Part shown: one piece after another, positions 31,327 through 45,629 of the stretch | How positions within the stretch are numbered: position 1 is the stretch's first letter | Layout: each line of letters begins with the position of its first letter | NCBI GenBank assembly: GCA_000014925.1 | Contig: CP000474.1 | Location: 1,736,001 to 1,800,000 of the forward strand | Length of the DNA: 64,000 nucleotides | Source: Paenarthrobacter aurescens TC1 | GTDB lineage: Bacteria > Actinomycetota > Actinomycetes > Actinomycetales > Micrococcaceae | Reading direction: 5' to 3' | The notes under the pieces: model-generated | What the model was told of the DNA's origin: nothing | What the model saw: only the letters and a program-made list of their open reading frames with translations | The model's database searches: none | Program-made: the position numbers and the translations under genes

Positions 31327-33870
31327 GTGCGTATCCCACTTTCCTGGCTGCGTGAATTCGCGCAGGTACCGGCCGACGCCACGGCCGAAGACGTCATGGC
31401 TGACCTGGTCAAAGTTGGCTTCGAAGAAGAAGAAGTCCACCGCCCCACCGACGAGCTCAGGGGTCCCATTGTGGTTGGCCAGGTCCTAAGCCTGGTCAAG
31501 GAACCGCAGACCAACGGCAAAACCATCAACTGGTGCCAGGTCCGCGTGGTCCCTGAGGGACAGGAGCAGACCCTCACCGGCAAGGGCATCGATCCTTCCG
31601 GTGTGCAGGGCATCATCTGTGGTGCTCACAACTTTGTTGAGGGAGACAAGGTAGTTGTCACGCTGCCTGGTGCTGTCCTGCCCGGCAACTTCCAGATCTC
31701 GGCGCGGAAGACCTACGGTCACTTGTCCGCGGGCATGATCGCTTCCGTTCGCGAGCTGGGCATCGGGGACGACCACGACGGTATCCTGGTCCTATCGCGT
31801 ATCGGCCTGGACCCGGAAATCGGCACTGACGCGATGGAACTCCTTGGTCTCTACGACCAGGCAGCGGAAATCAACGTCACGCCGGACCGCGGTTATGCTT
31901 TCTCCATCCGTGGTGTCGCCCGTGAATACGCCCACGCCACCGGGACCACGTTCGTGGATCCGGCGTCGAGGGTCAGCGCACCGGCTTCCCTTCAGGGCGG
32001 CTACGGCGTCAAGATCAACGACGAGGCGCCGATCTACGGCAAGCCCGGCTGCGACCGCTTCGTGGCCCGCACGGTCCGCGGCGTGGATGCTTCACGTCCC
32101 ACCCCGCCGTGGATGTCCGCGCGCCTTCGCCTGGCCGGCGTTCGCTCCATCTCGTTGCCGGTTGATATCTCCAACTACGTCATGCTGGAGCTCGGCCAGC
32201 CGAACCACTGCTATGACCTGGACAAGCTCGCTGGCGACATCGTGGTTCGTCGTGCAGTGGCGGGGGAGAAGATCACCACCCTCGATGACAAAGAGCGCAC
32301 GCTCGATGTCGAGGACCTGCTGATCACCGATGATTCCGGCGCCATCGGCATCGCCGGTGTGATGGGCGGCGCCCACACCGAGGTGTCCGATTCCACCACC
32401 AACATCCTGGTGGAAGCCGCGCACTTCGACGAAGTCTCCATTGCCCGCTCCCGTCGCCGGCACAAGCTGCCGTCCGAAGCTTCCAAACGCTTCGAACGTG
32501 GCGTGGACTGGCACGTCGCCAACATTGCCGCCCAGCGCGTGGTTGACCTCTTGGTCGAGCTCGCCGGTGGCACCGCAGATGAGGCCGGGACTGACGTCGG
32601 AACCGCTCCTGACGCCGTCACCATTGAACTACCCGCAGAGTTCGCCTCCGCCCGTATCGGCATCGACTTCACTGACGAGCAGATCACCACGTCCCTTGTG
32701 GACCTGGGGGCCGTGGTGGAGAAGACCGCCAGCGGCTACCGCGTGACGGCTCCGAGTTGGCGCAACGACCTCGAAACCAAGGAAGACCTCTCCGAGGAAA
32801 TCGCGCGTCTTGTCGGCTACGACAACATCCCCTCGACTCTTCCGGTGGCGCCTCCGGGCCGTGGCCTGAGCCGCAGCCAGCAGCAGAAGCGCCGCGTTGT
32901 CCAGGCTTTGGCTGATGCAGGGCTGACCGAGGTGTTGTCCTACCCGTTCGTCTCCAAGGCAGCCAATGACACCTTCGGTGTTGCTGCTGAAGGTGCGGCT
33001 CGCCCGGCGCTCAAGCTGGCCAACCCCATCAGTGAGGAACAAGGGTACCTCCGCACCTCCATCCTGCCGGGCTTGATCGAGGTCGCCCGCCGCAACCACT
33101 CGCGCGGCTTCCGCGACCTGGCATTGTATGAGGCCGGTTCGGTCTTCCTCCCCGGTGACAAGCTGGGCACGGATTCCATTCCGCCGCTGGGCGTCAAGCC
33201 TGCCGATGAGGTACTGGATGCACTGTACGACGGCGTCCCTTACCAGCCGCTGCACATCGCCGCTGTCCTGACCGGCCATGATTCACCGGCCGCTGCGACG
33301 CATACGCCGCGTGCCTGGGACTGGGCAGACGCTGTTGATGTGGCACGCCTGATCGCCGACGTTTTGGGCGTGGAACTGGTTGTCAGCCAGGGAAGCCACC
33401 AGGCATTCCACCCGGGCCGTGCAGCCCAGCTTGCGCTGCGCACTGGCGACGTTGTGGGCTACGCAGGAGAGCTGCACCCTAAGCTCCTGGCTGCGCACGA
33501 CATGCCGGCCCGCTCCGTGGCACTTGAGGTCAACGTTGAAGCGTTGTTCGAAGCTGCCGCTGACGTGATCGTGGCCAAGCACATCTCCGGGTTCCCCGTG
33601 GCGACGCAGGATGTTGCCTTGGTTGTCCCGCAGGACGTGCCGGCAGACCAAGTCCTTTCGGCGCTCCGCGAAGGCGCCGGAGTCCTCCTCGAAGATGTCT
33701 CGTTGTTCGATGTCTATGTGGGGCCGGGCATTGAGGACGGCAAGAAGTCGCTGGCTTTCGGCTTGCGTTTCCGCGCGGACGACCGCACGTTGACGGCCGA
33801 TGAGGCCTCTGAAGCCCGCGCTGCTGCTGTGGCCGTGGCGACTGAGCGGTTTGGGGCTGTTCAGCGCTGA
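31327..33870 (+). CDS. pheT: Phenylalanyl-tRNA synthetase beta subunit
   Basis: An 847-aa beta subunit: N-terminal IPLSWLREFAQVPADATAED, tRNA-binding (EMAP-like) domain with GIICGAHNFVEGDKVVV, B3/B4 editing domain around VDISNYVMLELGQPNHCYDLDK, B5 domain, inactive synthetase-like core (YPFVSKAANDTF), and the C-terminal anticodon-binding FDX-ACB domain (HISGFPVATQDVALVVP). GTG at 31327 is the first codon after the pheS stop; the longer open frame from 31135 lies inside pheS. A strong terminator follows. Confidence 0.97.
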   Translation: MRIPLSWLREFAQVPADATAEDVMADLVKVGFEEEEVHRPTDELRGPIVVGQVLSLVKEPQTNGKTINWCQVRVVPEGQEQTLTGKGIDPSGVQGIICGAHNFVEGDKVVVTLPGAVLPGNFQISARKTYGHLSAGMIASVRELGIGDDHDGILVLSRIGLDPEIGTDAMELLGLYDQAAEINVTPDRGYAFSIRGVAREYAHATGTTFVDPASRVSAPASLQGGYGVKINDEAPIYGKPGCDRFVARTVRGVDASRPTPPWMSARLRLAGVRSISLPVDISNYVMLELGQPNHCYDLDKLAGDIVVRRAVAGEKITTLDDKERTLDVEDLLITDDSGAIGIAGVMGGAHTEVSDSTTNILVEAAHFDEVSIARSRRRHKLPSEASKRFERGVDWHVANIAAQRVVDLLVELAGGTADEAGTDVGTAPDAVTIELPAEFASARIGIDFTDEQITTSLVDLGAVVEKTASGYRVTAPSWRNDLETKEDLSEEIARLVGYDNIPSTLPVAPPGRGLSRSQQQKRRVVQALADAGLTEVLSYPFVSKAANDTFGVAAEGAARPALKLANPISEEQGYLRTSILPGLIEVARRNHSRGFRDLALYEAGSVFLPGDKLGTDSIPPLGVKPADEVLDALYDGVPYQPLHIAAVLTGHDSPAAATHTPRAWDWADAVDVARLIADVLGVELVVSQGSHQAFHPGRAAQLALRTGDVVGYAGELHPKLLAAHDMPARSVALEVNVEALFEAAADVIVAKHISGFPVATQDVALVVPQDVPADQVLSALREGAGVLLEDVSLFDVYVGPGIEDGKKSLAFGLRFRADDRTLTADEASEARAAAVAVATERFGAVQR

Positions 33871-33888
33871 CCTGTTTTACTTAGGACT

Positions 33889-33926
33889 GTCCCCGGAATC
33901 GAACAGGTTCCGGGGACTTTCTTTTT
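33889..33926 (+). terminator. Terminator after pheT
   Basis: GTCCCCGGAA / TTCCGGGGAC stem (10 bp) with an 9-nt loop, then TTTCTTTTTATT. Confidence 0.9.
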
Positions 33927-33960
33927 ATTGAGATAACACTCCCAGCATCTTGACAGGGTA

Positions 33961-33998
33961 TTCACATGTGTATGACAGTTTTGTCATACACATGTGAA
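33961..33998 (+). promoter_or_regulatory. 16-bp palindromic operator or mRNA hairpin before protease gene
   Basis: TTCACATGTGTATGAC and GTCATACACATGTGAA are perfect inverted repeats around AGTTTT. Each arm contains the self-complementary octamer CACATGTG. TTGACA (33950-33955) lies just upstream. It could be a repressor site overlapping the promoter, or a protective 5' hairpin in the mRNA. Confidence 0.6.
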
Positions 33999-34054
33999 GC
34001 ATGCGTATCACATCCCTCGCACGGTTCCCCAGAGCCGTCCCTTGAAAGGTACCC

Positions 34055-34921
34055 ATGAAGAAGCAGAACGTTGCTTTGCTTGTCGGGGCTGCAGTAATGG
34101 CTTTGACGTCCTCGCTTGGTGGAGCCGCTGTGGCGTCAGAGTCGACGCCCCAAGTGAACGCCGCAGAGGTCCAGCCCGTATCGCACACGGTAGACCAATC
34201 GCAGGTTTCCGGTTCCGCCGCGTCGCCGTTGGCAGACAAATACACCATTGCCGCACCCTCCAAGAACGGCGGCGCCTCCACAGACTCAGTCATCGGTGCG
34301 GACGGCCGGGTGCGGATCACCAACACCACTGCGGCACCCAACCGCTCGATCGTGCAGATTGAATTCAATGGCGGCTACATCTGCTCCGGTGCCTTGATCT
34401 CCGACGACACAGTCCTGACTGCCGGGCACTGCGTGCACGAGGGCGGCACCGGATCGGAAACCGACTACTCCTGGGGTGTCAAAGTGGCTCCGGGCCGCAA
34501 CGGCTCAACCGATCCCTACGGCACGTGCGGGGCAACCAAGATCTTCACGGACCAGCGCTGGATCGACTCCGCCAATACCAACGCAGACTGGGGTGTCATC
34601 AAGCTCGACTGCACCATCGGTAACACCACCGGATGGCTCAACTACACCGGCACAACCGCCAGCCTGAACGGGATCAGCACTACGGTCCGGGGCTATCCGG
34701 GAGACAAAGCCTTCGGCACCATGTGGTCCATGACCGGCCCCATTGAAAGCACCCAGACGGAGAAGGTTTTCTACAAGATGGACACCTACGGCGGTCAGAG
34801 TGGCGCCCCCGTGTACAACAGCTCCAACACCATCGTGGCAATCCACACCAACGGCGGCAGCTCCAACTCAGGCACCCGCATCACGCCCACGCTGGCGAAC
34901 TACCTGACGTCGGTGAAGTAA
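34055..34921 (+). CDS. Secreted trypsin-like serine protease, glutamyl-endopeptidase (V8) type
   Basis: A 288-aa preproprotein. Signal peptide (residues 1 to about 28: MKKQ, hydrophobic core, AVAS), a propeptide to about residue 85, then an S1-family domain with catalytic His125 (LTAGHC), Asp178 (NTNADWGVIKL) and Ser249 (YGGQSGAPVY). The motif GQSGAP and short S1B-like fold recall the glutamyl endopeptidases; specificity for Glu is inferred. Cysteine pairs C110/C126 and C158/C186 probably form disulfides. Separate transcription unit with a strong palindrome in its promoter region. AAAGGTACCCATG start. Confidence 0.88.
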   Translation: MKKQNVALLVGAAVMALTSSLGGAAVASESTPQVNAAEVQPVSHTVDQSQVSGSAASPLADKYTIAAPSKNGGASTDSVIGADGRVRITNTTAAPNRSIVQIEFNGGYICSGALISDDTVLTAGHCVHEGGTGSETDYSWGVKVAPGRNGSTDPYGTCGATKIFTDQRWIDSANTNADWGVIKLDCTIGNTTGWLNYTGTTASLNGISTTVRGYPGDKAFGTMWSMTGPIESTQTEKVFYKMDTYGGQSGAPVYNSSNTIVAIHTNGGSSNSGTRITPTLANYLTSVK

Positions 34922-34945
34922 CCCGGATGAGTTAACTCACCTAAA

Positions 34946-34982
34946 AGTGTTCCCCGCTGCGAACCTGGCTGCGGGGAACACT
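34946..34982. terminator. Hairpin after protease gene
   Basis: AGTGTTCCCCGC / GCGGGGAACACT stem of 12 bp with a 13-nt loop. On the minus strand it is followed by TTTTAGG, so the T run is on that side. Confidence 0.6.
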
Positions 34983-35051
34983 GCTGTCCGGGTGGGATGC
35001 GAGAGAAGCACGCTAAAGTTTTGCTGGGGAGAGAGCCGTAGGGAGGTCGTG

Positions 35052-35699
35052 ATGGATAACCCAAAACTTGCGCTGCATAAGCTGGGTGACCTGCCTTTTT
35101 CGGATGTCCCTCTTCGAGACCTTGGCCAACCGGCCTTCGAGCGCGCCAACAGCTTTGCCGATGCCAAGGACCGCAACGTGTTCCTTGCCGGCCGGCTCGC
35201 TCTCCAGCACTTCGCGGCCTCGCTCCTCGACGTGGACCCCACTCGGCTGGTACCGGACTATTGTTGCCCGCGGTGCGGCCCGGGACAGGACCACGGCCGC
35301 CCCGGGTTCATGCTCGACGGCGGCCCGGCAGCTTTGGCGGTGAGCGCGTCCCGGGCGTCGGGCTGGGTGCTGCTGGCCGGCGTCGTACATCCAGCGGAGG
35401 GCATCCGGCTGGGAGCGGACCTTGAAGCGATAAGCGGGATTGGCTTCGATGGCTTTGACGGCGTCGCCTTGACCGCAGCCGAGAAGGTATTCCTGGTGTC
35501 CATCCCGGCGCAGGATCAAGCCAGGCAGCGCGCCCGGCTCTGGGCGCGCAAAGAAGCCTGGCTAAAGATGATGGGCGAGGGTCTGCGAAGGAACCCAGCC
35601 GAATTGGACGTGTTGGACCGTCCGGGCTTACAGGACGTGAACATTGTCAGCAATCGTGATCTGCCGGAAGGCCTGGTCGCCGCTTTGGCCCTCGGCTAA
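35052..35699 (+). CDS. 4'-phosphopantetheinyl transferase superfamily protein (Sfp-like)
   Basis: A 215-aa PPTase that loads the phosphopantetheine arm onto carrier proteins. Core motifs: RLGADLEAI (P2, metal-binding Asp-Glu) and RLWARKEAWLKMMGEGL (P3, W-x-x-KEA). The N-terminal half is typical of Sfp-type enzymes. ATG at 35052 follows GGGAGG; the frame opens earlier at 34947. A carrier protein with a matching Ser is present in the Pls-like synthetase two genes away, making it the natural substrate. It is convergent with the aminopeptidase gene (4 bp apart). Confidence 0.82.
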   Translation: MDNPKLALHKLGDLPFSDVPLRDLGQPAFERANSFADAKDRNVFLAGRLALQHFAASLLDVDPTRLVPDYCCPRCGPGQDHGRPGFMLDGGPAALAVSASRASGWVLLAGVVHPAEGIRLGADLEAISGIGFDGFDGVALTAAEKVFLVSIPAQDQARQRARLWARKEAWLKMMGEGLRRNPAELDVLDRPGLQDVNIVSNRDLPEGLVAALALG

Positions 35700-35703
35700 C
35701 GCG

Positions 35704-37047
35704 TCAACGCGCTGAAGGCAGTGGTGGCAGCGAAGCTTCGTACAGCCACGGGCGGAGAATCGACGCGGCATTAAGCCCGGGAACGAATGAATCCGCAGCC
35801 TCAATGAACGTCCCAGTTGAGACCGAACCGTGCCGATTCGTAGCCGTCCAGTGCTGCAGGAAACCGAAGAATGCTTCGTCCCCGGCCGCCATCCGCACCG
35901 CATGAACGGCAAGTGCGCCGCGTTTGTAGACCCGGTCATCGAACATCAGCTCGGGACCCGGATCACCCACTACGAGGTCTTGGGCCCCGGCGTCGAGCCT
36001 CTTCCACGCGGCCGTTGCGCGGGCGGCGACCGTCATGGTGCGGGATTCCTCGGACCATAGCCACTCCGCATAGCAGGCGAAGCCTTCATGCAGCCAGATG
36101 TCCTTCCAGCTGCTCACCGTGAGCGAATTGCCAAACCACTGGTGCGAGAGCTCGTGCGCGATCAGGCGCTGCGCATCCCATGTGTCGCGCATATGGTTTC
36201 GCCCGAAGATGGAGACGGTCTGGGCTTCCAGTGGAATTTCCAACTCGTCTTCGGTGACCACCGAGGTGTAGTCGGCGAACGGGTAGGGGCCGAAGCAGTC
36301 CTCGAAAGTACGCATCATGTCCGGCTGCCGGCGCAGGCCTTGGAGGGCGTCCACTGCCATCTCGGGCGTCACGGCAACAAACTGGGGGACCCGATGGTGA
36401 GTATTGCCGGCGTGGAGTGGAACCCTCGCGTAGCGACCGATCTGCACAGTGGCCAGGTACGTGGCCATGGGTTCGGTTTGTTCGTAGACCCACGTTTCCC
36501 GGCTGGACTTCCGGGTATGGCTGACCAGCCGGCCGTTGCAGACGGGCCGGTAATTGTCGTCTGTGGTGACGGAGATGAGGAAGGTTGACTTGTACCGCGG
36601 ATGGTCGTTGCACGGGAACCAGGACGCTGCACCGTTGGGCTGGCCGGCCACCAGTACGCCGTCGTTCAATTCCTCCCAGCCGACATCACCCCAGAGGCCG
36701 CGGCGCGGCTGGGGGTTGCCGTCGTAGCGGATCTCGAGTGAGAACTGCTGGCCAGGCTTGAGCGAGGCTGCCGGCGTCAGCACCAGGTGCTCCGCCCTGT
36801 GGCTGAACTTCTGAAGCTTCTTGCCATCCAGCTGAACCTTGCTGGCCCGCAGGCCCACCAGGTCCAGGACGATCTGCGAGGCCGCCTCCAGGGCCGTGCA
36901 TCGCAGGACCGCTTTGCCGATCAGCTTGTTGCTGCCCAGCCTGACATCGAGGTCCAACTCGTACCCGTCCACGCGGTAGCTGCTGCTGCCGTGGTTCAAG
37001 GCGTAGGGGTCGGCTTCGGCTGTGGGAGTAGCGATTGGTACGGTCAT
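35704..37047 (-). CDS. M1-family zinc metallopeptidase (aminopeptidase)
   Basis: A 447-aa M1 peptidase with complete zinc site HELSH-x18-E (His298, His302, Glu321; Glu299 catalytic) and the exopeptidase motif position occupied by PLEAQTVS (residues 272-279) instead of GAMEN. It contains the N-terminal beta-saddle and catalytic domain but lacks the large C-terminal HEAT domain of PepN (about 850 aa). It starts 12 nt downstream of the Pls-like synthetase stop, so the two are probably co-transcribed. Streptomyces epsilon-poly-lysine degrading enzyme is described as an M1-type zinc aminopeptidase, so a similar role is possible. Confidence 0.85.
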   Translation of the reverse strand: MTVPIATPTAEADPYALNHGSSSYRVDGYELDLDVRLGSNKLIGKAVLRCTALEAASQIVLDLVGLRASKVQLDGKKLQKFSHRAEHLVLTPAASLKPGQQFSLEIRYDGNPQPRRGLWGDVGWEELNDGVLVAGQPNGAASWFPCNDHPRYKSTFLISVTTDDNYRPVCNGRLVSHTRKSSRETWVYEQTEPMATYLATVQIGRYARVPLHAGNTHHRVPQFVAVTPEMAVDALQGLRRQPDMMRTFEDCFGPYPFADYTSVVTEDELEIPLEAQTVSIFGRNHMRDTWDAQRLIAHELSHQWFGNSLTVSSWKDIWLHEGFACYAEWLWSEESRTMTVAARATAAWKRLDAGAQDLVVGDPGPELMFDDRVYKRGALAVHAVRMAAGDEAFFGFLQHWTATNRHGSVSTGTFIEAADSFVPGLNAASILRPWLYEASLPPLPSAR

Positions 37048-37059
37048 GATCCGTCCAAT

Positions 37060-40000
37060 CTACTTGAGGCGCGGCGCTTGTGCAGACGGACCCACCCACG
37101 GGCTCACCGGGTTACCCATCCAGTACGTCCCGGCCGGGACGGTTTCGCCGCGCATGACCAACGACGCCGGACCAACAGTACCGCCGTCGCCGATGCTGGC
37201 CGCGGGGAGGATGACGCCGTGCGGTCCCATGGTGGCACCGTTGCCGAGCGTCACGGTGTCGAGGCTCATCACACGGTCGTGGAACAGGTGGGTCTGGACC
37301 ACGCAGCCACGGTTGACGGTGGAGTTCTCGCCCAAGGTCACGAGGTCAGCTTCGGGGAGCCAGTAGCTTTCGCACCATGTTCCGCGTCCGATCTTGGCTC
37401 CAAGTCCGCGCAACCACCACACCAAGGCAGGAGTTCCGGCAGCAGACCGGGCAAACCACGGGGCGCTCACCATCTCGATAAACGTGTCCACAACCTCGTT
37501 GCGCCAAATGAACGAGCTCCACAGCGGATGTTCTCCCGAACGGATGCTCCCCACCAGGACCCACTTAGCGACGATGGAGCTGAGCGCGGCAACGGCGCCT
37601 GCGGCCAGCATCACTACGCCACCCAGGAGGGCGGCAATCCAGTAGCCCCACCCGCGGGCGATCCAGTCCAGCACCAGCATCACGGAGACAGCGATGTTCA
37701 CCGTGAGGATGACCGGAACCAAGCGGCACAGCTCCCACAGGGCTCGTGCCAGTTTGAGCTTGAGGGGCGGTTGAAAGGTGCGGGTCTGGTCAGCGTTGAC
37801 TGCGGTGCGGCGCAACCTCACCGGAGGGCTGCCAAGCCATGAGGTACCGGATTTCGCCTTGGCGGGCGTGGCCGACAGCACTGCGACGAGGGAATTCTTG
37901 GGTACGTTGCGGCCTGCGGCCGTCATCCCCGAGTTGCCAAGGAAGGAACGCTTCCCGATCTTCGCGGGAGCGATTTTCATCCACCCGCCGCCAAGCTCGT
38001 AGGAGGCAACCATAGTGTCATCCGCCAGGAAGGCGCCATCGCCAATGGTGGTCATTTTTGGAACGAGCAGCACGGTGGAGGCTTCCACGTTCTTGCCCAC
38101 CTTGGCCCCGAGGAGTCGGAGCCAGACAGGGGTGAACAGGCTTGCGTACACGGGAAAGAGGAGGTCGCGTGCCATGTCCAGGAGGCGTTCCGTGGCCCAG
38201 ACCTGCCAGCCGATGCGGCTTCGAACCCGGTAGTAGCCCTCCGCCAGGCCCAATCCCAGAAGCCTGGCGACAATCAGGATGAGCACGAGGTTGCCGAAGA
38301 ACCACACCAGGGCCGCCAGCGGCAGGGCGATGGCGATGTGCGGAAGAGCGGTCTCCAACGAATCATGGCCTTGGATGAAAGCCAGGACCACCAGTGCGCC
38401 TGCGAAAGCAGAAACATAGGGGATGAGGGCCAGAAGGGCCGAAGCGCTGGCAAAGGCGGAGAACCAGAGCCTGTCGATGACGGGCCGGCGGCTGCTGGGC
38501 TCAGGCCACTCGTGCTTGGCTTTTCCGCGGCGTTCTGCGGGGGAGCCGGCTACGAGGTGTCCGGCTTTTACTTTGCCCAGCACAGCGGATCCAGCATCGA
38601 CATGGGCACCTGCGCCGATGGTCGCTCCGGGCATCAGGGTGCTCCGTGCACCTACGACTGCACCAGCTCCCACGTGGATCTGGCCGATGTGGACTGAATC
38701 GCCGTCCACCCACCAGCCCGAAAGGTCCACTTCGGGCTCGATGTTTGCGCCGCTACCCAAGGACAGCAGGCCGGTGACCGGGGGCAACGAGTGCAGATGG
38801 ACGTCCCTGCCGATTTTCGCACCCAGGGCGCGCGCGTAGTACGGGACGAACGGTGCGCTGGCCAGGCCGATGGCGCCCGAAAGATCCTGAATTTGCTCTG
38901 CGAGCCACAGCCGCAGGTGCGTCTTGCCGGACCTCGGGTAAGTGCCGGGTTCAATTCTGCCGAGCAGGATGCGGGCCGCCAGGACCGAGATCGCCATGCG
39001 GCCCAAGGGGCTGACAAAGACCAACCATGACGCCGCGATCCACCACCAGGAGACCACGGGGGCCGCAGCGAACCCGGCAAAGGCTGCAAGTAGATTGTTG
39101 GCGCCCATGAGGTAGGTCAGCCAGCGCATCCCCACGAGTATGTGGAGCGGCACGCCCATGAGGACCTGGAAAATCTGCGACTTCAAAGCGGTGGGACGGA
39201 CGGTGCGCTCAGCGGCGGGACCCGGCGTGCCGCCGTCGGGCAGTGATTGCCGGGCGGCGTCAATCAGGGCGCCGATGCGAGGCGTCGCATAAATATCGGC
39301 GACGGTAATGGTGGGGTACCGGACACGAAGAGCGGAAACGAGCTGGGCCGCTGCCAGGGACCCGCCGCCGTAGGCGAAGAAATCGGCATCCAGGGAACTC
39401 ACCGGACTGCCCAGCACAGACTCCCACTGATCCACTACCCAACCCGCGTCATCCGGCAGGTTCAACGGTGCGTTGCTGGCCTCCGTGGCACCGGCCCCCG
39501 CCAGCGGCCAGGGAAGGGCATGACGGTCTACTTTGCCGCTGGTCTTGGTGGGTAGCGAATCCACCACGGTCAGCAAAGGGATCAAGGCAGCCGGAAGGCT
39601 CTCGCCGAGGAGCTTCCGTGCTTCATCCATATCGAGCTCATGGCCGTCAGCCGGAGCCAAGTACCCCACCAGGATCTGGTTGCCGGCCGCCGTCGTCTGG
39701 ACTGCGGCCGCTGCGCCGGCAACGCCGGGGAGGGATTGCAAGGCCGCATCCACTTCGCCCAGTTCGATGCGTCGCCCGCCCAGCTTGACCTGTTCATCGG
39801 CCCGGCCCATGAAGATCAAGCCCTCGGCTTCGAAGCGCACCAGGTCGCCAGAGCGGTAGGCGCGGGCCCATCCCAGCGTGGTCATGGGGGCGTACTTCTC
39901 GGCGTCCTTGGCGGGATCCAGGTAGCGGGCCAACCCGACGCCGCCGATGATCAGTTCGCCGATGTCGCCTTCAGCGACCGGTACTCCATTGGAATCGACG

Positions 40001-41016
40001 ACGGCGAGGTCCCACCCGTCCAGCGGCAGGCCGATCCGCACGGGACCGGGTCCGCCAAGGGGAGCGGCGCACGCCACCACCGTGGCCTCTGTGGGCCCGT
40101 AAGTGTTCCACACTTCGCGGCCGTCCACGGCGAGCCGTTCGGCCAATTCGGGTGGGCATGCTTCGCCGCCGAAGATGAGGAGCCGCACGTTCTCCAATGC
40201 CTCAGCCGGCCACAGTGCAGCCAAGGTGGGCACTGTGGAGACTACCGTGATGCCGTGGTTGATGAGCCAGGGGCCGAGGTCCATTCCGGTGCGAACCAGG
40301 GCTCGTGGTGCGGGCACCAAGCAAGCACCGTGCCGCCAGGCAAGCCACATCTCCTCGCAGGAAGCGTCGAATGCGACGGAGAGCCCAGCCAGTACCCGGT
40401 CCTGAGGTCCAATGGGTTCGGCTTGGAGGAAGATCCGGGCTTCCGCGTCAACGAACGCTGCGGAAGAGCGGTGCTTGACGGCGACGCCCTTGGGAGTGCC
40501 TGTGGAACCGGAAGTGAAAATGATCCAGGAATCGTCATCCAGTCCGGGCGTGCCGGGACCGGAAACAGCTTCCCTTGCCTCGCCGGCGAGCTGGACGTCC
40601 AGGCCCGAAGCAATGACCGCGCCAACTTTGGCTTCCCCGAACACCAACTTGGCGCGCTCGTCGGGGTCGTCCGCATCCACCGGGACATAAGCGGCGCCGG
40701 CCATGAGAATTCCCAGTATGGCGATGTAAAGCTCATTGGTTCCCGAGGGGATCCTGACGCCGATCTTGTCCCCACGGCCAAGCCCTGCACCGTTCAATTG
40801 CGCTGCGAAAGCGCGGACAGCCTTGAGCAGTTCGGTGTAGCTCAATGACTTGTGCCCATCATCCAAGGCAGAGGCCTCGGGGAATGATGAAGCGGTATCT
40901 TCCAGGATGTCGACGAGAGTGCGCTCGGCGGGGGCCGCCGCGCCTCCCGGTAGCTGGGGTCGGTATGTCATCAGGGCAGGCGTCGTACCGGCCCCAGCGG
41001 GATGTTCTGTGCTCAC
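37060..41016 (-). CDS. Pls/PosA-family nonribosomal peptide synthetase (epsilon-poly-L-lysine synthetase-like)
   Basis: A 1318-aa membrane NRPS. Domains: adenylation (about 30-510; P-loop IIFTSGSTGTPKGVAV, RSGDLVRFEAEGLIFMGRAD, GKVDRHALPW), carrier (525-590; phosphopantetheine Ser553 in YGGGSLAAAQ), then three left-handed beta-helix C-terminal domains (about 725-830, 970-1060, 1205-1300) separated by membrane helices (about 615-690, 845-920, 1090-1150). No condensation or thioesterase domain. This exact layout is that of epsilon-poly-L-lysine synthetase Pls, where the tandem domains ligate lysines iteratively. Pocket residues read D217 A218 E221 S260 I281 G283 T305 V313 V314 K495. GTG start. 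Confidence 0.85.
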   Translation of the reverse strand: MSTEHPAGAGTTPALMTYRPQLPGGAAAPAERTLVDILEDTASSFPEASALDDGHKSLSYTELLKAVRAFAAQLNGAGLGRGDKIGVRIPSGTNELYIAILGILMAGAAYVPVDADDPDERAKLVFGEAKVGAVIASGLDVQLAGEAREAVSGPGTPGLDDDSWIIFTSGSTGTPKGVAVKHRSSAAFVDAEARIFLQAEPIGPQDRVLAGLSVAFDASCEEMWLAWRHGACLVPAPRALVRTGMDLGPWLINHGITVVSTVPTLAALWPAEALENVRLLIFGGEACPPELAERLAVDGREVWNTYGPTEATVVACAAPLGGPGPVRIGLPLDGWDLAVVDSNGVPVAEGDIGELIIGGVGLARYLDPAKDAEKYAPMTTLGWARAYRSGDLVRFEAEGLIFMGRADEQVKLGGRRIELGEVDAALQSLPGVAGAAAAVQTTAAGNQILVGYLAPADGHELDMDEARKLLGESLPAALIPLLTVVDSLPTKTSGKVDRHALPWPLAGAGATEASNAPLNLPDDAGWVVDQWESVLGSPVSSLDADFFAYGGGSLAAAQLVSALRVRYPTITVADIYATPRIGALIDAARQSLPDGGTPGPAAERTVRPTALKSQIFQVLMGVPLHILVGMRWLTYLMGANNLLAAFAGFAAAPVVSWWWIAASWLVFVSPLGRMAISVLAARILLGRIEPGTYPRSGKTHLRLWLAEQIQDLSGAIGLASAPFVPYYARALGAKIGRDVHLHSLPPVTGLLSLGSGANIEPEVDLSGWWVDGDSVHIGQIHVGAGAVVGARSTLMPGATIGAGAHVDAGSAVLGKVKAGHLVAGSPAERRGKAKHEWPEPSSRRPVIDRLWFSAFASASALLALIPYVSAFAGALVVLAFIQGHDSLETALPHIAIALPLAALVWFFGNLVLILIVARLLGLGLAEGYYRVRSRIGWQVWATERLLDMARDLLFPVYASLFTPVWLRLLGAKVGKNVEASTVLLVPKMTTIGDGAFLADDTMVASYELGGGWMKIAPAKIGKRSFLGNSGMTAAGRNVPKNSLVAVLSATPAKAKSGTSWLGSPPVRLRRTAVNADQTRTFQPPLKLKLARALWELCRLVPVILTVNIAVSVMLVLDWIARGWGYWIAALLGGVVMLAAGAVAALSSIVAKWVLVGSIRSGEHPLWSSFIWRNEVVDTFIEMVSAPWFARSAAGTPALVWWLRGLGAKIGRGTWCESYWLPEADLVTLGENSTVNRGCVVQTHLFHDRVMSLDTVTLGNGATMGPHGVILPAASIGDGGTVGPASLVMRGETVPAGTYWMGNPVSPWVGPSAQAPRLK

Positions 41017-41127
41017 GAACGTCAGCTTTCCGCAGAAAGATGAACAAAAGGTGTCTGACGTTTCCTGCCCTTAACACTTTGTTGCATCATTGTTCGCTTT
41101 CCGCTCACCTGACGTTCAAACCGGTAC

Positions 41128-42093
41128 TTAAGGGACCAGCAGGACTTTTCCAGTGGTCCGGCGGCCTTCCAAGTCCCGGTGCGCCTGGGCCGCTTCTGCC
41201 AAGGGATAGGTGGCACCAACCCTGACAGCGAGGGTGCCGTTGGCGGCGGCGTCGAAAATTTCTGCCGAGCGCCATCGACGCTCGTGGGTGTTCTGGACAA
41301 AGTGAGCCATGGTGGGCCTGGTCAGGGTGAGCGAACCTGCGGCGTTCAAACGCTGGGGATCGAACGGCGGCACCGGGCCGGAAGCCGCACCGAAGAGCAC
41401 CATGGCGCCGCGGATGCGCAGGCTCTTCAGGGAGTCATCGAACGTGTCCTTGCCGACGCCGTCGTACACCACATTGACGCCCTCGCCGTCGGTAAGTTCG
41501 CGGACTCTGTCTGCGAAGCCCTCGTAGCGGAGTACTTCATCGGCACCTGCCAGCGTGGAGAGATCGGCCTTCTCATCAGAGGAGACGGTGGTGATGACGC
41601 GGGCGCCGCGGGCCTTGAGCAGTTGGGTCAGCAGGAGGCCGACGCCGCCGGCACCTGCATGCAGGAGGACGGTGTGCCCGGGCTCCACCCGGAAGGATGA
41701 ATTCATCAGGTAGTGAGCGGTGATTCCCTGCAGCGGCAGGGCCGCGGCGGTGTGATCATCGACGCCGTCAGGAACCGGCAGTGCCTTGCTTGCCTCAACG
41801 AGGGCGTACTCCGCGTAGGTTCTGGACCCCTCGGCGGTGGCAATGCGGTCACCAACAGAGAATTCCTCAACGCCTTCTCCTACGGCCTCGACTGTGCCGG
41901 CAGCCTCGGCGCCCGGCGTGAAGGGGTACTCCACTTTGTAGGTGCCGCTGCGTTGGTACGTCTCGATAAAATTGACCCCGGCAGCTGCGACCTTGATCAA
42001 CAGCTGGCCGGGGCCAGGCGACGGTGTTTCCACGGATGCGTACTCGAGGACCTCAGGTCCTCCGGACTGCTGTGCAACGATGGCGTTCGTCAT
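41128..42093 (-). CDS. NADPH:quinone oxidoreductase (zeta-crystallin type, MDR superfamily)
   Basis: A 321-aa zinc-free medium-chain reductase. N-terminal GroES-like fold with GVNFIETYQRSGTYK and PFTPGAEAAGTVEAVGEGV, and NADPH-binding Rossmann fold with VLLHAGAGGVGLLLTQLLK. GGPEVLEY and EGVNVVYDGVGKDTFDDSL are typical of quinone oxidoreductases. AAGGAGCC precedes the ATG. Followed by the Pls-like gene after 111 nt on the same strand, upstream of which sits the desaturase. Confidence 0.93.
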   Translation of the reverse strand: MTNAIVAQQSGGPEVLEYASVETPSPGPGQLLIKVAAAGVNFIETYQRSGTYKVEYPFTPGAEAAGTVEAVGEGVEEFSVGDRIATAEGSRTYAEYALVEASKALPVPDGVDDHTAAALPLQGITAHYLMNSSFRVEPGHTVLLHAGAGGVGLLLTQLLKARGARVITTVSSDEKADLSTLAGADEVLRYEGFADRVRELTDGEGVNVVYDGVGKDTFDDSLKSLRIRGAMVLFGAASGPVPPFDPQRLNAAGSLTLTRPTMAHFVQNTHERRWRSAEIFDAAANGTLAVRVGATYPLAEAAQAHRDLEGRRTTGKVLLVP

Positions 42094-42178
42094 GGTGGCT
42101 CCTTACTCCGGGGCGGTCCTTCCGGTGCCCGGTTTCAGAATCCATCCTAGGGAGGTTGGGGCCTCCGGTGTCGAACGC

Positions 42179-43267
42179 CTAGCGGCGTCCGTGCGTCGAA
42201 GCGACGGGGCAGTCGAAGCCGCGGCCTGCGGCCAAGCCCACGTCATTCAGGTACCGGACCACGATGCCGTAAGACTGCATGAGCGTGGTTTCGGTGTAGG
42301 TGATGGAGTGTTTGCTGCAGAACTCGCGCACAATTTTTGTGGCCTTGTACAAATGGGGGCGAGCCATGTCAGGGAACAGGTGGTGTTCCACCTGCCGGTT
42401 CAGTCCACCCAGGAGGAAGTCCATAAAGATGCCGCCGGAGATATTGCGCGAGGTCAGGATCTGGCGGTTGAGGAAGTCCACGCGGCTGTCCTTGGGAAGG
42501 ACGGGCATGCCTTTGTGGTTCGGGGCGAACGAGGCCCCCATGTAGAAGCCGTAGACCATGATCTGCACACCCAGGAAGGCGAACGCCATGCCGATGGGCA
42601 GGAACGTGAATGCCAGAACCGGGAGGGCGGCCAGCCTTGTGACCAGGATGGGCGTCTCTACCCAGCGGTGGCGTACTTTCTGCTTGCCGAAGACGAAGCG
42701 AAGGGAGTCAAACTGCAGGCTCAAGCCGAGGAGCGTCAGGAGCGGGAAGAAGAACCAGCCCTGCTTCTTGGTGAGGAAAGCGAGGCGGCCCTTACGTTCG
42801 GCTGCGGCGTCTTCGTAGAAGACCAAGGCGTTGTTCCGGATGTCCGGGTCCTTGGAAATGACGTTGGGGTGGTTGTGGTGGGCTCCGTGCTTCTGCTCCC
42901 ACCAAGAGTAGCTGATGCCGGCGACGCCGGTGGCCAGGAGACGGGCGGACCAGTCATTGGCGCGGCGTGAGGCGAAGATCTGCTTGTGGCCCGCCTCGTG
43001 GGCCAGGAAGCTCAACTGCGTGCAGAGGATACCCACGGCAGCGGCGATCAACAGCTGGTACCAGGATTCACCGATCAAGGCGAACCCCAACCAGGTGCCC
43101 GCCATAAGGAGCACTAAGGCCACGAAGACCCAGATGTAAAAGCCGCTACGGCGTTCGAGGAGTCCTTCGGCTTTGACGCTCTTGAGGAGCTCGGAGTAGC
43201 TCTGGACGACGGGGTTGGGTTGAATTGCGCGAGCTTTGGGGCGCTCAGCGGTGGACGTGGGTGACAT
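42179..43267 (-). CDS. Acyl-CoA/acyl-lipid fatty acid desaturase
   Basis: A 362-aa membrane di-iron desaturase with the three histidine boxes HEAGH (about residue 97), HGAHHNHP (about 130) and NRQVEHHLFPDMAR (about 300). The third box starting with Q rather than H resembles front-end or DesA3-like acyl desaturases. Membrane helices flank the boxes. ATG at 43267 (MSPTSTAERP) follows GGGG; the frame is open a little further (43333). Regiospecificity cannot be read from sequence. Divergent from argC. Confidence 0.88.
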   Translation of the reverse strand: MSPTSTAERPKARAIQPNPVVQSYSELLKSVKAEGLLERRSGFYIWVFVALVLLMAGTWLGFALIGESWYQLLIAAAVGILCTQLSFLAHEAGHKQIFASRRANDWSARLLATGVAGISYSWWEQKHGAHHNHPNVISKDPDIRNNALVFYEDAAAERKGRLAFLTKKQGWFFFPLLTLLGLSLQFDSLRFVFGKQKVRHRWVETPILVTRLAALPVLAFTFLPIGMAFAFLGVQIMVYGFYMGASFAPNHKGMPVLPKDSRVDFLNRQILTSRNISGGIFMDFLLGGLNRQVEHHLFPDMARPHLYKATKIVREFCSKHSITYTETTLMQSYGIVVRYLNDVGLAAGRGFDCPVASTHGRR

Positions 43268-43382
43268 AAATGTGCCCCGTATCGCTAACGGGCAACGCTG
43301 CAGCCGACGTTCGGACTGCACGGTCTGGATCACCCTTCACTAAGCATACGGGTAATCTCCAAAATAATGAGACTGCTCACAA

Positions 43383-43400
43383 TTGCATGCATAAATATCG
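43383..43400 (+). promoter_or_regulatory. Candidate ARG box 1 of argC promoter
   Basis: TTGCATGCATAAATATC resembles a degenerate ArgR half-pair (TGCAT / ATAAAT). It is 1 nt from a better symmetric site. Confidence 0.4.
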
Positions 43401-43401
43401 G

Positions 43402-45629
<2,228 letters not shown>

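What the first reader, a model, noticed from the sequence alone, without database searches (positions are those of the whole stretch)
35052..41016. Pls-type poly-lysine synthetase in tandem with an M1 aminopeptidase and beside a phosphopantetheinyl transferase
The 1318-aa protein (37060-41016) has the exact layout of epsilon-poly-L-lysine synthetase: adenylation, carrier, then three beta-helix domains with membrane helices and no condensation or thioesterase domain. Twelve nucleotides downstream is an M1 zinc aminopeptidase (HELSH-x18-E) lacking the HEAT domain. Established knowledge: the Streptomyces poly-lysine degrading enzyme is a membrane zinc aminopeptidase of the HExxH-x18-E type. An Sfp-like transferase that could prime Ser553 lies 4 bp from the aminopeptidase. 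Together they look like a make-activate-trim module for a cationic homopolymer. Production of poly-lysine by this genus is inference.
Basis: partly seen in the sequence, partly recalled or inferred. Interest (0 to 1): 0.8.

Follow-up and report, generated by a model that had tools for sequence, protein, structure and literature searches.

The report
Poly-lysine synthetase, peptidase and activator cassette
This actinobacterium carries an enzyme that very probably strings lysine into the natural antimicrobial poly-lysine, next to a likely poly-lysine-degrading enzyme (a pairing already known from Streptomyces and Corynebacterium), plus a neighbouring enzyme that probably switches the synthetase on, a partner not mentioned in the papers found here.

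Summary
37060-41016(-) is a Pls-type synthetase (TIGR02353, 708.5 bits; cut-off 423.1) whose 10-residue adenylation pocket, DAESIGTVVK, equals that of the crystallised S. albulus Pls (7WEW). 35704-37047(-) is an M1 peptidase 12 nt downstream. 35052-35699(+) is a PPTase, convergent with it at 4 bp.

Pls plus peptidase is not new: pls-pldII operons are published for S. albulus and C. variabile, and Pls homologues for Arthrobacter.

Three points go beyond the papers I found. (1) In the window's family the PPTase lies within 10 kb of a Pls in 70 of 77 genomes with both. Here it is the only ACPS-family match besides an AcpS-sized one; no condensation domain was found, and two of four carrier domains are Pls. 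Outside the family the link is patchy (at least 9 of 59). (2) The M1 lacks the twin-arginine-like leader of S. albulus-type enzymes, so it probably clears polymer inside the cell. (3) A related lysine-code Pls type goes with a membrane acetyltransferase gene, mostly without this M1.

No product was measured.

The parts
37060..41016 (-). Pls-type cationic homopoly(amino acid) synthetase, 1318 aa: A domain about 25-507, carrier about 526-587 (Ser553), terminal C1-C3/TM region 616-1304; pocket DAESIGTVVK
35704..37047 (-). PldII-like M1 zinc peptidase, 447 aa, HELSH-x18-E, no export signal seen; starts 12 nt after the Pls stop
35052..35699 (+). Sfp/HetI-superfamily 4'-phosphopantetheinyl transferase, 215 aa, convergent with the M1 gene (4 bp between the two stop ends)

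Best explanation
A lysine-homopolymer cassette. The PPTase loads phosphopantetheine on Ser553 of the Pls carrier. The A domain activates L-lysine, and the membrane C1-C3 region joins lysines iteratively through the side-chain amine to give epsilon-poly-L-lysine, which leaves the cell. The co-directional M1, by position and homology the counterpart of Streptomyces PldII, hydrolyses poly-lysine; having no signal peptide it most likely works in the cytosol, protecting the cell from polymer on the wrong side of the membrane and recycling lysine. Shown by sequence here: domain make-up, pocket identity, conserved linkage, no condensation domain in the genome, no export signal. Inferred: product, PPTase-Pls pairing, M1 substrate and its location.
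For: TIGR02353 708.5 bits against cut-off 423.1. 7WEW A domain 670 bits, E 4.8e-200, next hit 366 bits. Pocket identical 10/10; Ala at position 2 marks lysine, Met ornithine, Phe Dap/Dab (PMC10522769, passages). No TIGR00238 (KamA) match in the genome, against poly-beta-lysine. PldII-like M1 in 75 of 149 family genomes, all 75 with Pls, 70 with it directly downstream; class: 62 of 296, all with Pls, 61 directly downstream. A Streptomyces locus 93% identical in the A domain to the S. albulus query has the same M1 subfamily directly after Pls (L154), the published pldII position. PPTase profile hit in 77 of 82 family genomes with Pls against 18 of 67 without; within 10 kb of a Pls in 70 of the 77. 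Own genome: two PF01648 matches, no PF00668 match, four PF00550 matches, two of them Pls. The C. variabile homologue gave epsilon-PL when expressed in S. coelicolor (PMC8117764, parts 1-2 of 4).
Against: No product, expression or enzyme data for this locus. C. variabile itself made no detectable polymer in the published test, and its Pls gave polymer in S. coelicolor with no added PPTase, so a dedicated PPTase is not strictly needed. The PPTase is convergent, not co-transcribed; it was not seen in 14 of 74 M1 loci read (stretches of limited length), and 5 of 82 family Pls genomes lack a hit. In the class, only 43 of 73 Pls genomes hit the profile at E 1e-10, as do 62 of 223 without Pls. The two small carrier proteins could also be its clients. 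The export test was a hydropathy and R/K-R rule, not a trained predictor. 11 of 80 named Pls loci showed no M1.
Confidence: 0.75

Rival explanations
1. Same enzymes, but the peptidase leaves the cell by a non-classical route or sits on the outer face, and trims or removes secreted polymer as PldII is reported to do in S. albulus.
For: PldII of S. albulus is reported on the outside of the membrane (PMC9223678 and PMC9205021, passages); same subfamily and position.
Against: A twin-arginine-like leader is flagged in 7 of 69 named loci examined, all titled Streptomyces (7 of the 11 Streptomyces loci with M1), plus one doubtful; in 73 family loci only one doubtful case. The window M1 opens MTVPIATPTAE with no hydrophobic stretch.
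Confidence: 0.15
2. The synthetase polymerises another basic amino acid (ornithine, Dab, Dap or beta-lysine).
For: Relatives with these products share the architecture (PMC10522769 passages, PMC8117764 parts 1-2).
Against: Pocket identical to the lysine enzyme; Ala at position 2; no KamA match; the other Pls in this genome has the Phe-containing code DFECLSVVTK, so a non-lysine type is separately present.
Confidence: 0.08
3. The PPTase is only a neighbour: it serves small fatty-acid-type carriers or both Pls enzymes non-specifically, and its position reflects frozen gene order.
For: Convergent strand; a second FAS-like cluster with its own small carrier exists (read by eye); the locus lies between pheT and argC (read by eye), an old neighbourhood; family genomes share ancestry, so the Fisher p of 1.7e-18 overstates the evidence; outside the family 50 of 59 genomes with Pls and M1 show no nearby PPTase in the (cut) listing.
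Against: The convergent position recurs in at least 9 of those 59, from 7 other families, 97-358 bp from M1; in the family it is commoner with Pls (77 of 82) than without (18 of 67); no condensation domain in the genome.
Confidence: 0.2

Closest known systems
pls-pldII operon of Streptomyces albulus
   Same: Pls with identical pocket; peptidase gene directly downstream on the same strand, of this M1 subfamily in the close relative L154
   Different: There the two ORFs overlap by 4 nt (PMC4361855, passages) and PldII is reported on the outside of the membrane, with a leader seen in L154; here a 12-nt gap, no leader, and a convergent PPTase
Pls plus peptidase of Corynebacterium variabile (PMC8117764, parts 1-2 of 4 read, whole main text searched for terms)
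   Same: Coryneform actinobacterium, Pls-peptidase operon, lysine pocket; product shown by expression in S. coelicolor
   Different: No PPTase is mentioned anywhere in its main text; its peptidase sequence was not examined here
PosA delta-poly-L-ornithine synthetase, Acinetobacter baumannii (PMC10522769, passages)
   Same: Same synthetase family and architecture
   Different: Pocket DMEHNGTVSK (ornithine); single-gene operon
Sfp/HetI-type PPTases
   Same: ACPS-superfamily domain and catalytic core
   Different: Far below the curated cut-offs of the two NCBIfam families it hits (HetI 30.9 bits against 370; AusB 16.8 against 225)

Membership tests
Pls/PosA family synthetase (TIGR02353) | Terminal domain above curated cut-off, full profile | tested here: met
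   708.5 bits, 2-695/695
Pls/PosA family synthetase (TIGR02353) | A and carrier domains, no condensation or thioesterase, about six TM helices | tested here: met
   hydropathy only, two of the six stretches weak
epsilon-poly-L-lysine synthetase | Lysine pocket | tested here: met
   DAESIGTVVK, identical to 7WEW
epsilon-poly-L-lysine synthetase | Makes epsilon-poly-L-lysine | not testable with these tools
   needs expression and mass spectrometry
PldII | M1 fold with HExxH-x18-E | tested here: met
PldII | Gene directly downstream of pls | tested here: met
PldII | Exported to the outside of the membrane (reported for the S. albulus enzyme) | tested here: not met
   no leader or hydrophobic stretch by a simple rule; hence filed as PldII-like, not as an exported PldII
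PldII | Hydrolyses epsilon-poly-lysine | not testable with these tools
   needs enzyme assay
Sfp/HetI-type phosphopantetheinyl transferase | ACPS domain and WxxKExxxK core | tested here: met
Sfp/HetI-type phosphopantetheinyl transferase | Modifies Pls Ser553 | not testable with these tools
   needs biochemical assay

The most novel reading that the evidence does not exclude
In the window's family and scattered other actinobacteria, poly-lysine production is a self-contained make/clear switch: a dedicated PPTase turns Pls on, while a leaderless cytosolic PldII destroys polymer inside the cell. Their tail-to-tail genes (within 300 bp in 41 of 74 M1 loci read, 4 bp here) could set the two against each other by convergent transcription. 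Poly-lysine tolerance would then be an intracellular problem, not only one of the cell surface.
Probability: 0.2. Interest if true: 0.6.

Novelty: new variant of a known kind. Interest (0 to 1): 0.4.

Why it matters
Poly-lysine is an approved food preservative, and most of its genetics comes from Streptomyces. A compact cassette that appears to bring its own carrier-activating enzyme gives one testable reason, among others such as the promoter effect the authors favour, why Pls protein can be made without polymer, as in C. glutamicum (PMC8117764). The missing export signal makes the role of the degrading enzyme testable by simple fractionation.

Tried and rejected
Rejected: M1 as a chance neighbour or ordinary PepN. 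In the class search the listed scores fall from 394 to 301 bits, and every hit at 394 or above is in a Pls genome. Rejected: poly-beta-lysine (no KamA match). Promoter and terminator scans were at chance level; no tandem repeats in 33800-43500. The IPLEAQ segment, where many M1 enzymes have GxMEN (recalled), is common in this subfamily but was not shown to be specific to it. Structure prediction was not run because sequence homology was already decisive. An empty-site test between pheT and argC was planned and not run (genome searches spent).

Rows dropped: G039:C2 (219 bits, 35% identity, a second M1) was left out of the PldII-like count. Of 75 linked Pls rows 73 were fetched (the two rows of broken G144 were not); of 50 unlinked Pls rows 26 were fetched (7 of the 24 left out are under 500 bits). 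Several genome listings were cut at their low-scoring end.

Literature behind 'not found in print': searches, and the main text of PMC8117764. The library lacks most subscription papers; the primary PldII paper was seen only through later papers.

Full report
Observation. The PPTase lies on the opposite strand, tail to tail with the M1 gene, so the three genes are not one operon.

Synthetase. TIGR02353 covers the whole terminal region at 708.5 bits (cut-off 423.1). The nearest solved chain is the A domain of epsilon-poly-L-lysine synthase, 7WEW, at 670 bits; the next is at 366. I located the ten pocket positions from core motifs (the GrsA numbering is recalled) and read them through an alignment: window and 7WEW both give DAESIGTVVK. 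PMC10522769 (passages) reports that position 2 is Ala in lysine enzymes, Met in the ornithine enzyme and Phe in Dap/Dab enzymes. No TIGR00238 (KamA) match in this genome speaks against beta-lysine.

M1 linkage. Family (149 genomes): 82 have Pls; 75 have a PldII-like M1 and all 75 are Pls genomes; in 70 it lies within 500 bp of the end of the Pls match, downstream on the same strand, in 4 at 3.4-4 kb, in 1 on another contig (threshold 190 bits, one 219-bit row at 35% identity excluded; broken G144 is counted among the 70). Class (296 genomes, 3 of them from the family): 73 have Pls; 62 have the M1 at 394 bits or more, all 62 with Pls, 61 adjacent; the exception is G286, on another contig. The listed M1 scores fall from 394 to 301 bits at that point. 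11 of 73 class Pls genomes lack this M1; three of these have a more distant M1 (about 36% identity) about 970 nt from the Pls match. Named genomes: 69 of 80 Pls loci carry it. Of the 11 without, 3 stop within Pls or at its end at a contig edge (L156, L195, L206), one ends 0.75 kb after (L199), 4 are Kitasatospora loci from 3 genomes, one has an HGSNAT-like gene instead (L200), and L159 and L219 remain. Most Streptomyces loci closest to S. albulus carry the same subfamily in the published pldII position, so the window gene is the PldII counterpart by position and homology.

Prior knowledge. pls and pldII overlap by 4 nt and form an operon in S. albulus (PMC4361855, passages). The Corynebacterium variabile pair, and Pls homologues in Arthrobacter and related genera with pockets identical or highly similar to confirmed Pls, are in PMC8117764 (parts 1-2 of 4). 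The core is therefore a known kind.

PPTase. Among 149 family genomes, 77 of 82 with Pls hit the 19-row profile and 18 of 67 without; shared ancestry makes the Fisher value (1.7e-18) only indicative. In 70 of the 77 it lies within 10 kb of a Pls of any type. Of 74 loci with the M1 gene (73 with Pls, among them the window's own, and one M1-only stretch), 60 show it: 54 convergent downstream of M1 (41 within 300 bp; one of the others, L121, is a weak 26-bit hit), 3 upstream of Pls, 3 between M1 and Pls. In the class, 43 of 73 Pls genomes and 62 of 223 others hit the profile at E 1e-10. Of the 59 class genomes outside the family with both Pls and this M1, at least 9, from 7 families, have it convergent 97-358 bp from M1 (G228, G420, G342, G351, G377, G395, G356, G402, G434; the listing was cut). 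So the partnership is strong in the family and patchy beyond. Among 80 named loci 7 show it, in Arthrobacter, Pseudarthrobacter, Humibacillus and Brachybacterium. In this genome PF01648 has two matches, an AcpS-sized frame and this one; PF00668 has none; PF00550 has four: two small carriers whose neighbours look like fatty-acid synthesis genes by eye, and the two Pls.

Export. A rule asking for an R/K-R pair followed by a hydrophobic run flags 7 of 69 named loci, all titled Streptomyces (7 of the 11 Streptomyces loci with M1), and one doubtful case; in 73 family loci it flags one doubtful case. A leader without such a pair would not be flagged. For the window itself the case is clear: the frame runs only 4 codons above the ATG, about 15 codons separate the Pls stop from the conserved domain, and no hydrophobic stretch is present. 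This moves the likely site of action to the cytosol; a trained predictor should repeat the test.

Other Pls types in the family (26 of 50 unlinked rows read). M1-linked: 71 of 72 readable pockets are DAESIGTVVK, one DAESIGTVIK. Not M1-linked: 12 DAESIGTVIK, all with an HGSNAT-like membrane acetyltransferase gene in the stretch read, 4 of them also with dapA and 4 with the PPTase; 10 DFECLSVVTK, 3 with M28 peptidases, 3 with an HGSNAT-like gene and one shown with a class III aminotransferase (L131); 1 DGESVSVVNK; 3 split types. The VIK group suggests a second way of handling poly-lysine, acetylation instead of hydrolysis; that is inference, and four loci (L123-L126) plus the named locus L232 carry both genes.

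Noticed in passing
L127:4501-8367 (G000:C2, own genome): A second Pls-type synthetase on another contig with pocket DFECLSVVTK (Phe at position 2, as reported for Dap/Dab enzymes), with an HGSNAT-like gene about 3 kb away.
   Followed up: partly
L132, L133, L136, L137, L138, L140-L143, L145-L147; both gene sets in L123-L126: Lysine-code (VIK) Pls with an HGSNAT-like membrane acetyltransferase gene nearby in 12 of 12 loci read, 4 with dapA; none of the 69 family loci with M1 directly after Pls shows the acetyltransferase in the stretch read. Possible alternative poly-lysine handling.
   Followed up: partly
L135:4843-6957; L152:2390-4239; L134:5255-6118: M28 peptidase genes beside DFECLSVVTK-type Pls, two in tandem in L135 and L152, one in L134.
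   Followed up: no
L149 (similar split synthetase in L148, L150): Synthetase apparently split in two proteins; in L149 next to PALP and TauD-family genes, suggesting a different monomer supply.
   Followed up: no
G144:C1:641982-645507: Pls with in-frame stops next to an M1 gene that is also broken: both decay together.
   Followed up: no
G163:C9, G234:C3, G308:C1: Another M1 subfamily (about 36% identity) lies about 970 nt from the end of the Pls match in three genomes of one genus.
   Followed up: no
window 34055-34921: Trypsin-like serine protease gene just upstream of the PPTase, same strand.
   Followed up: no
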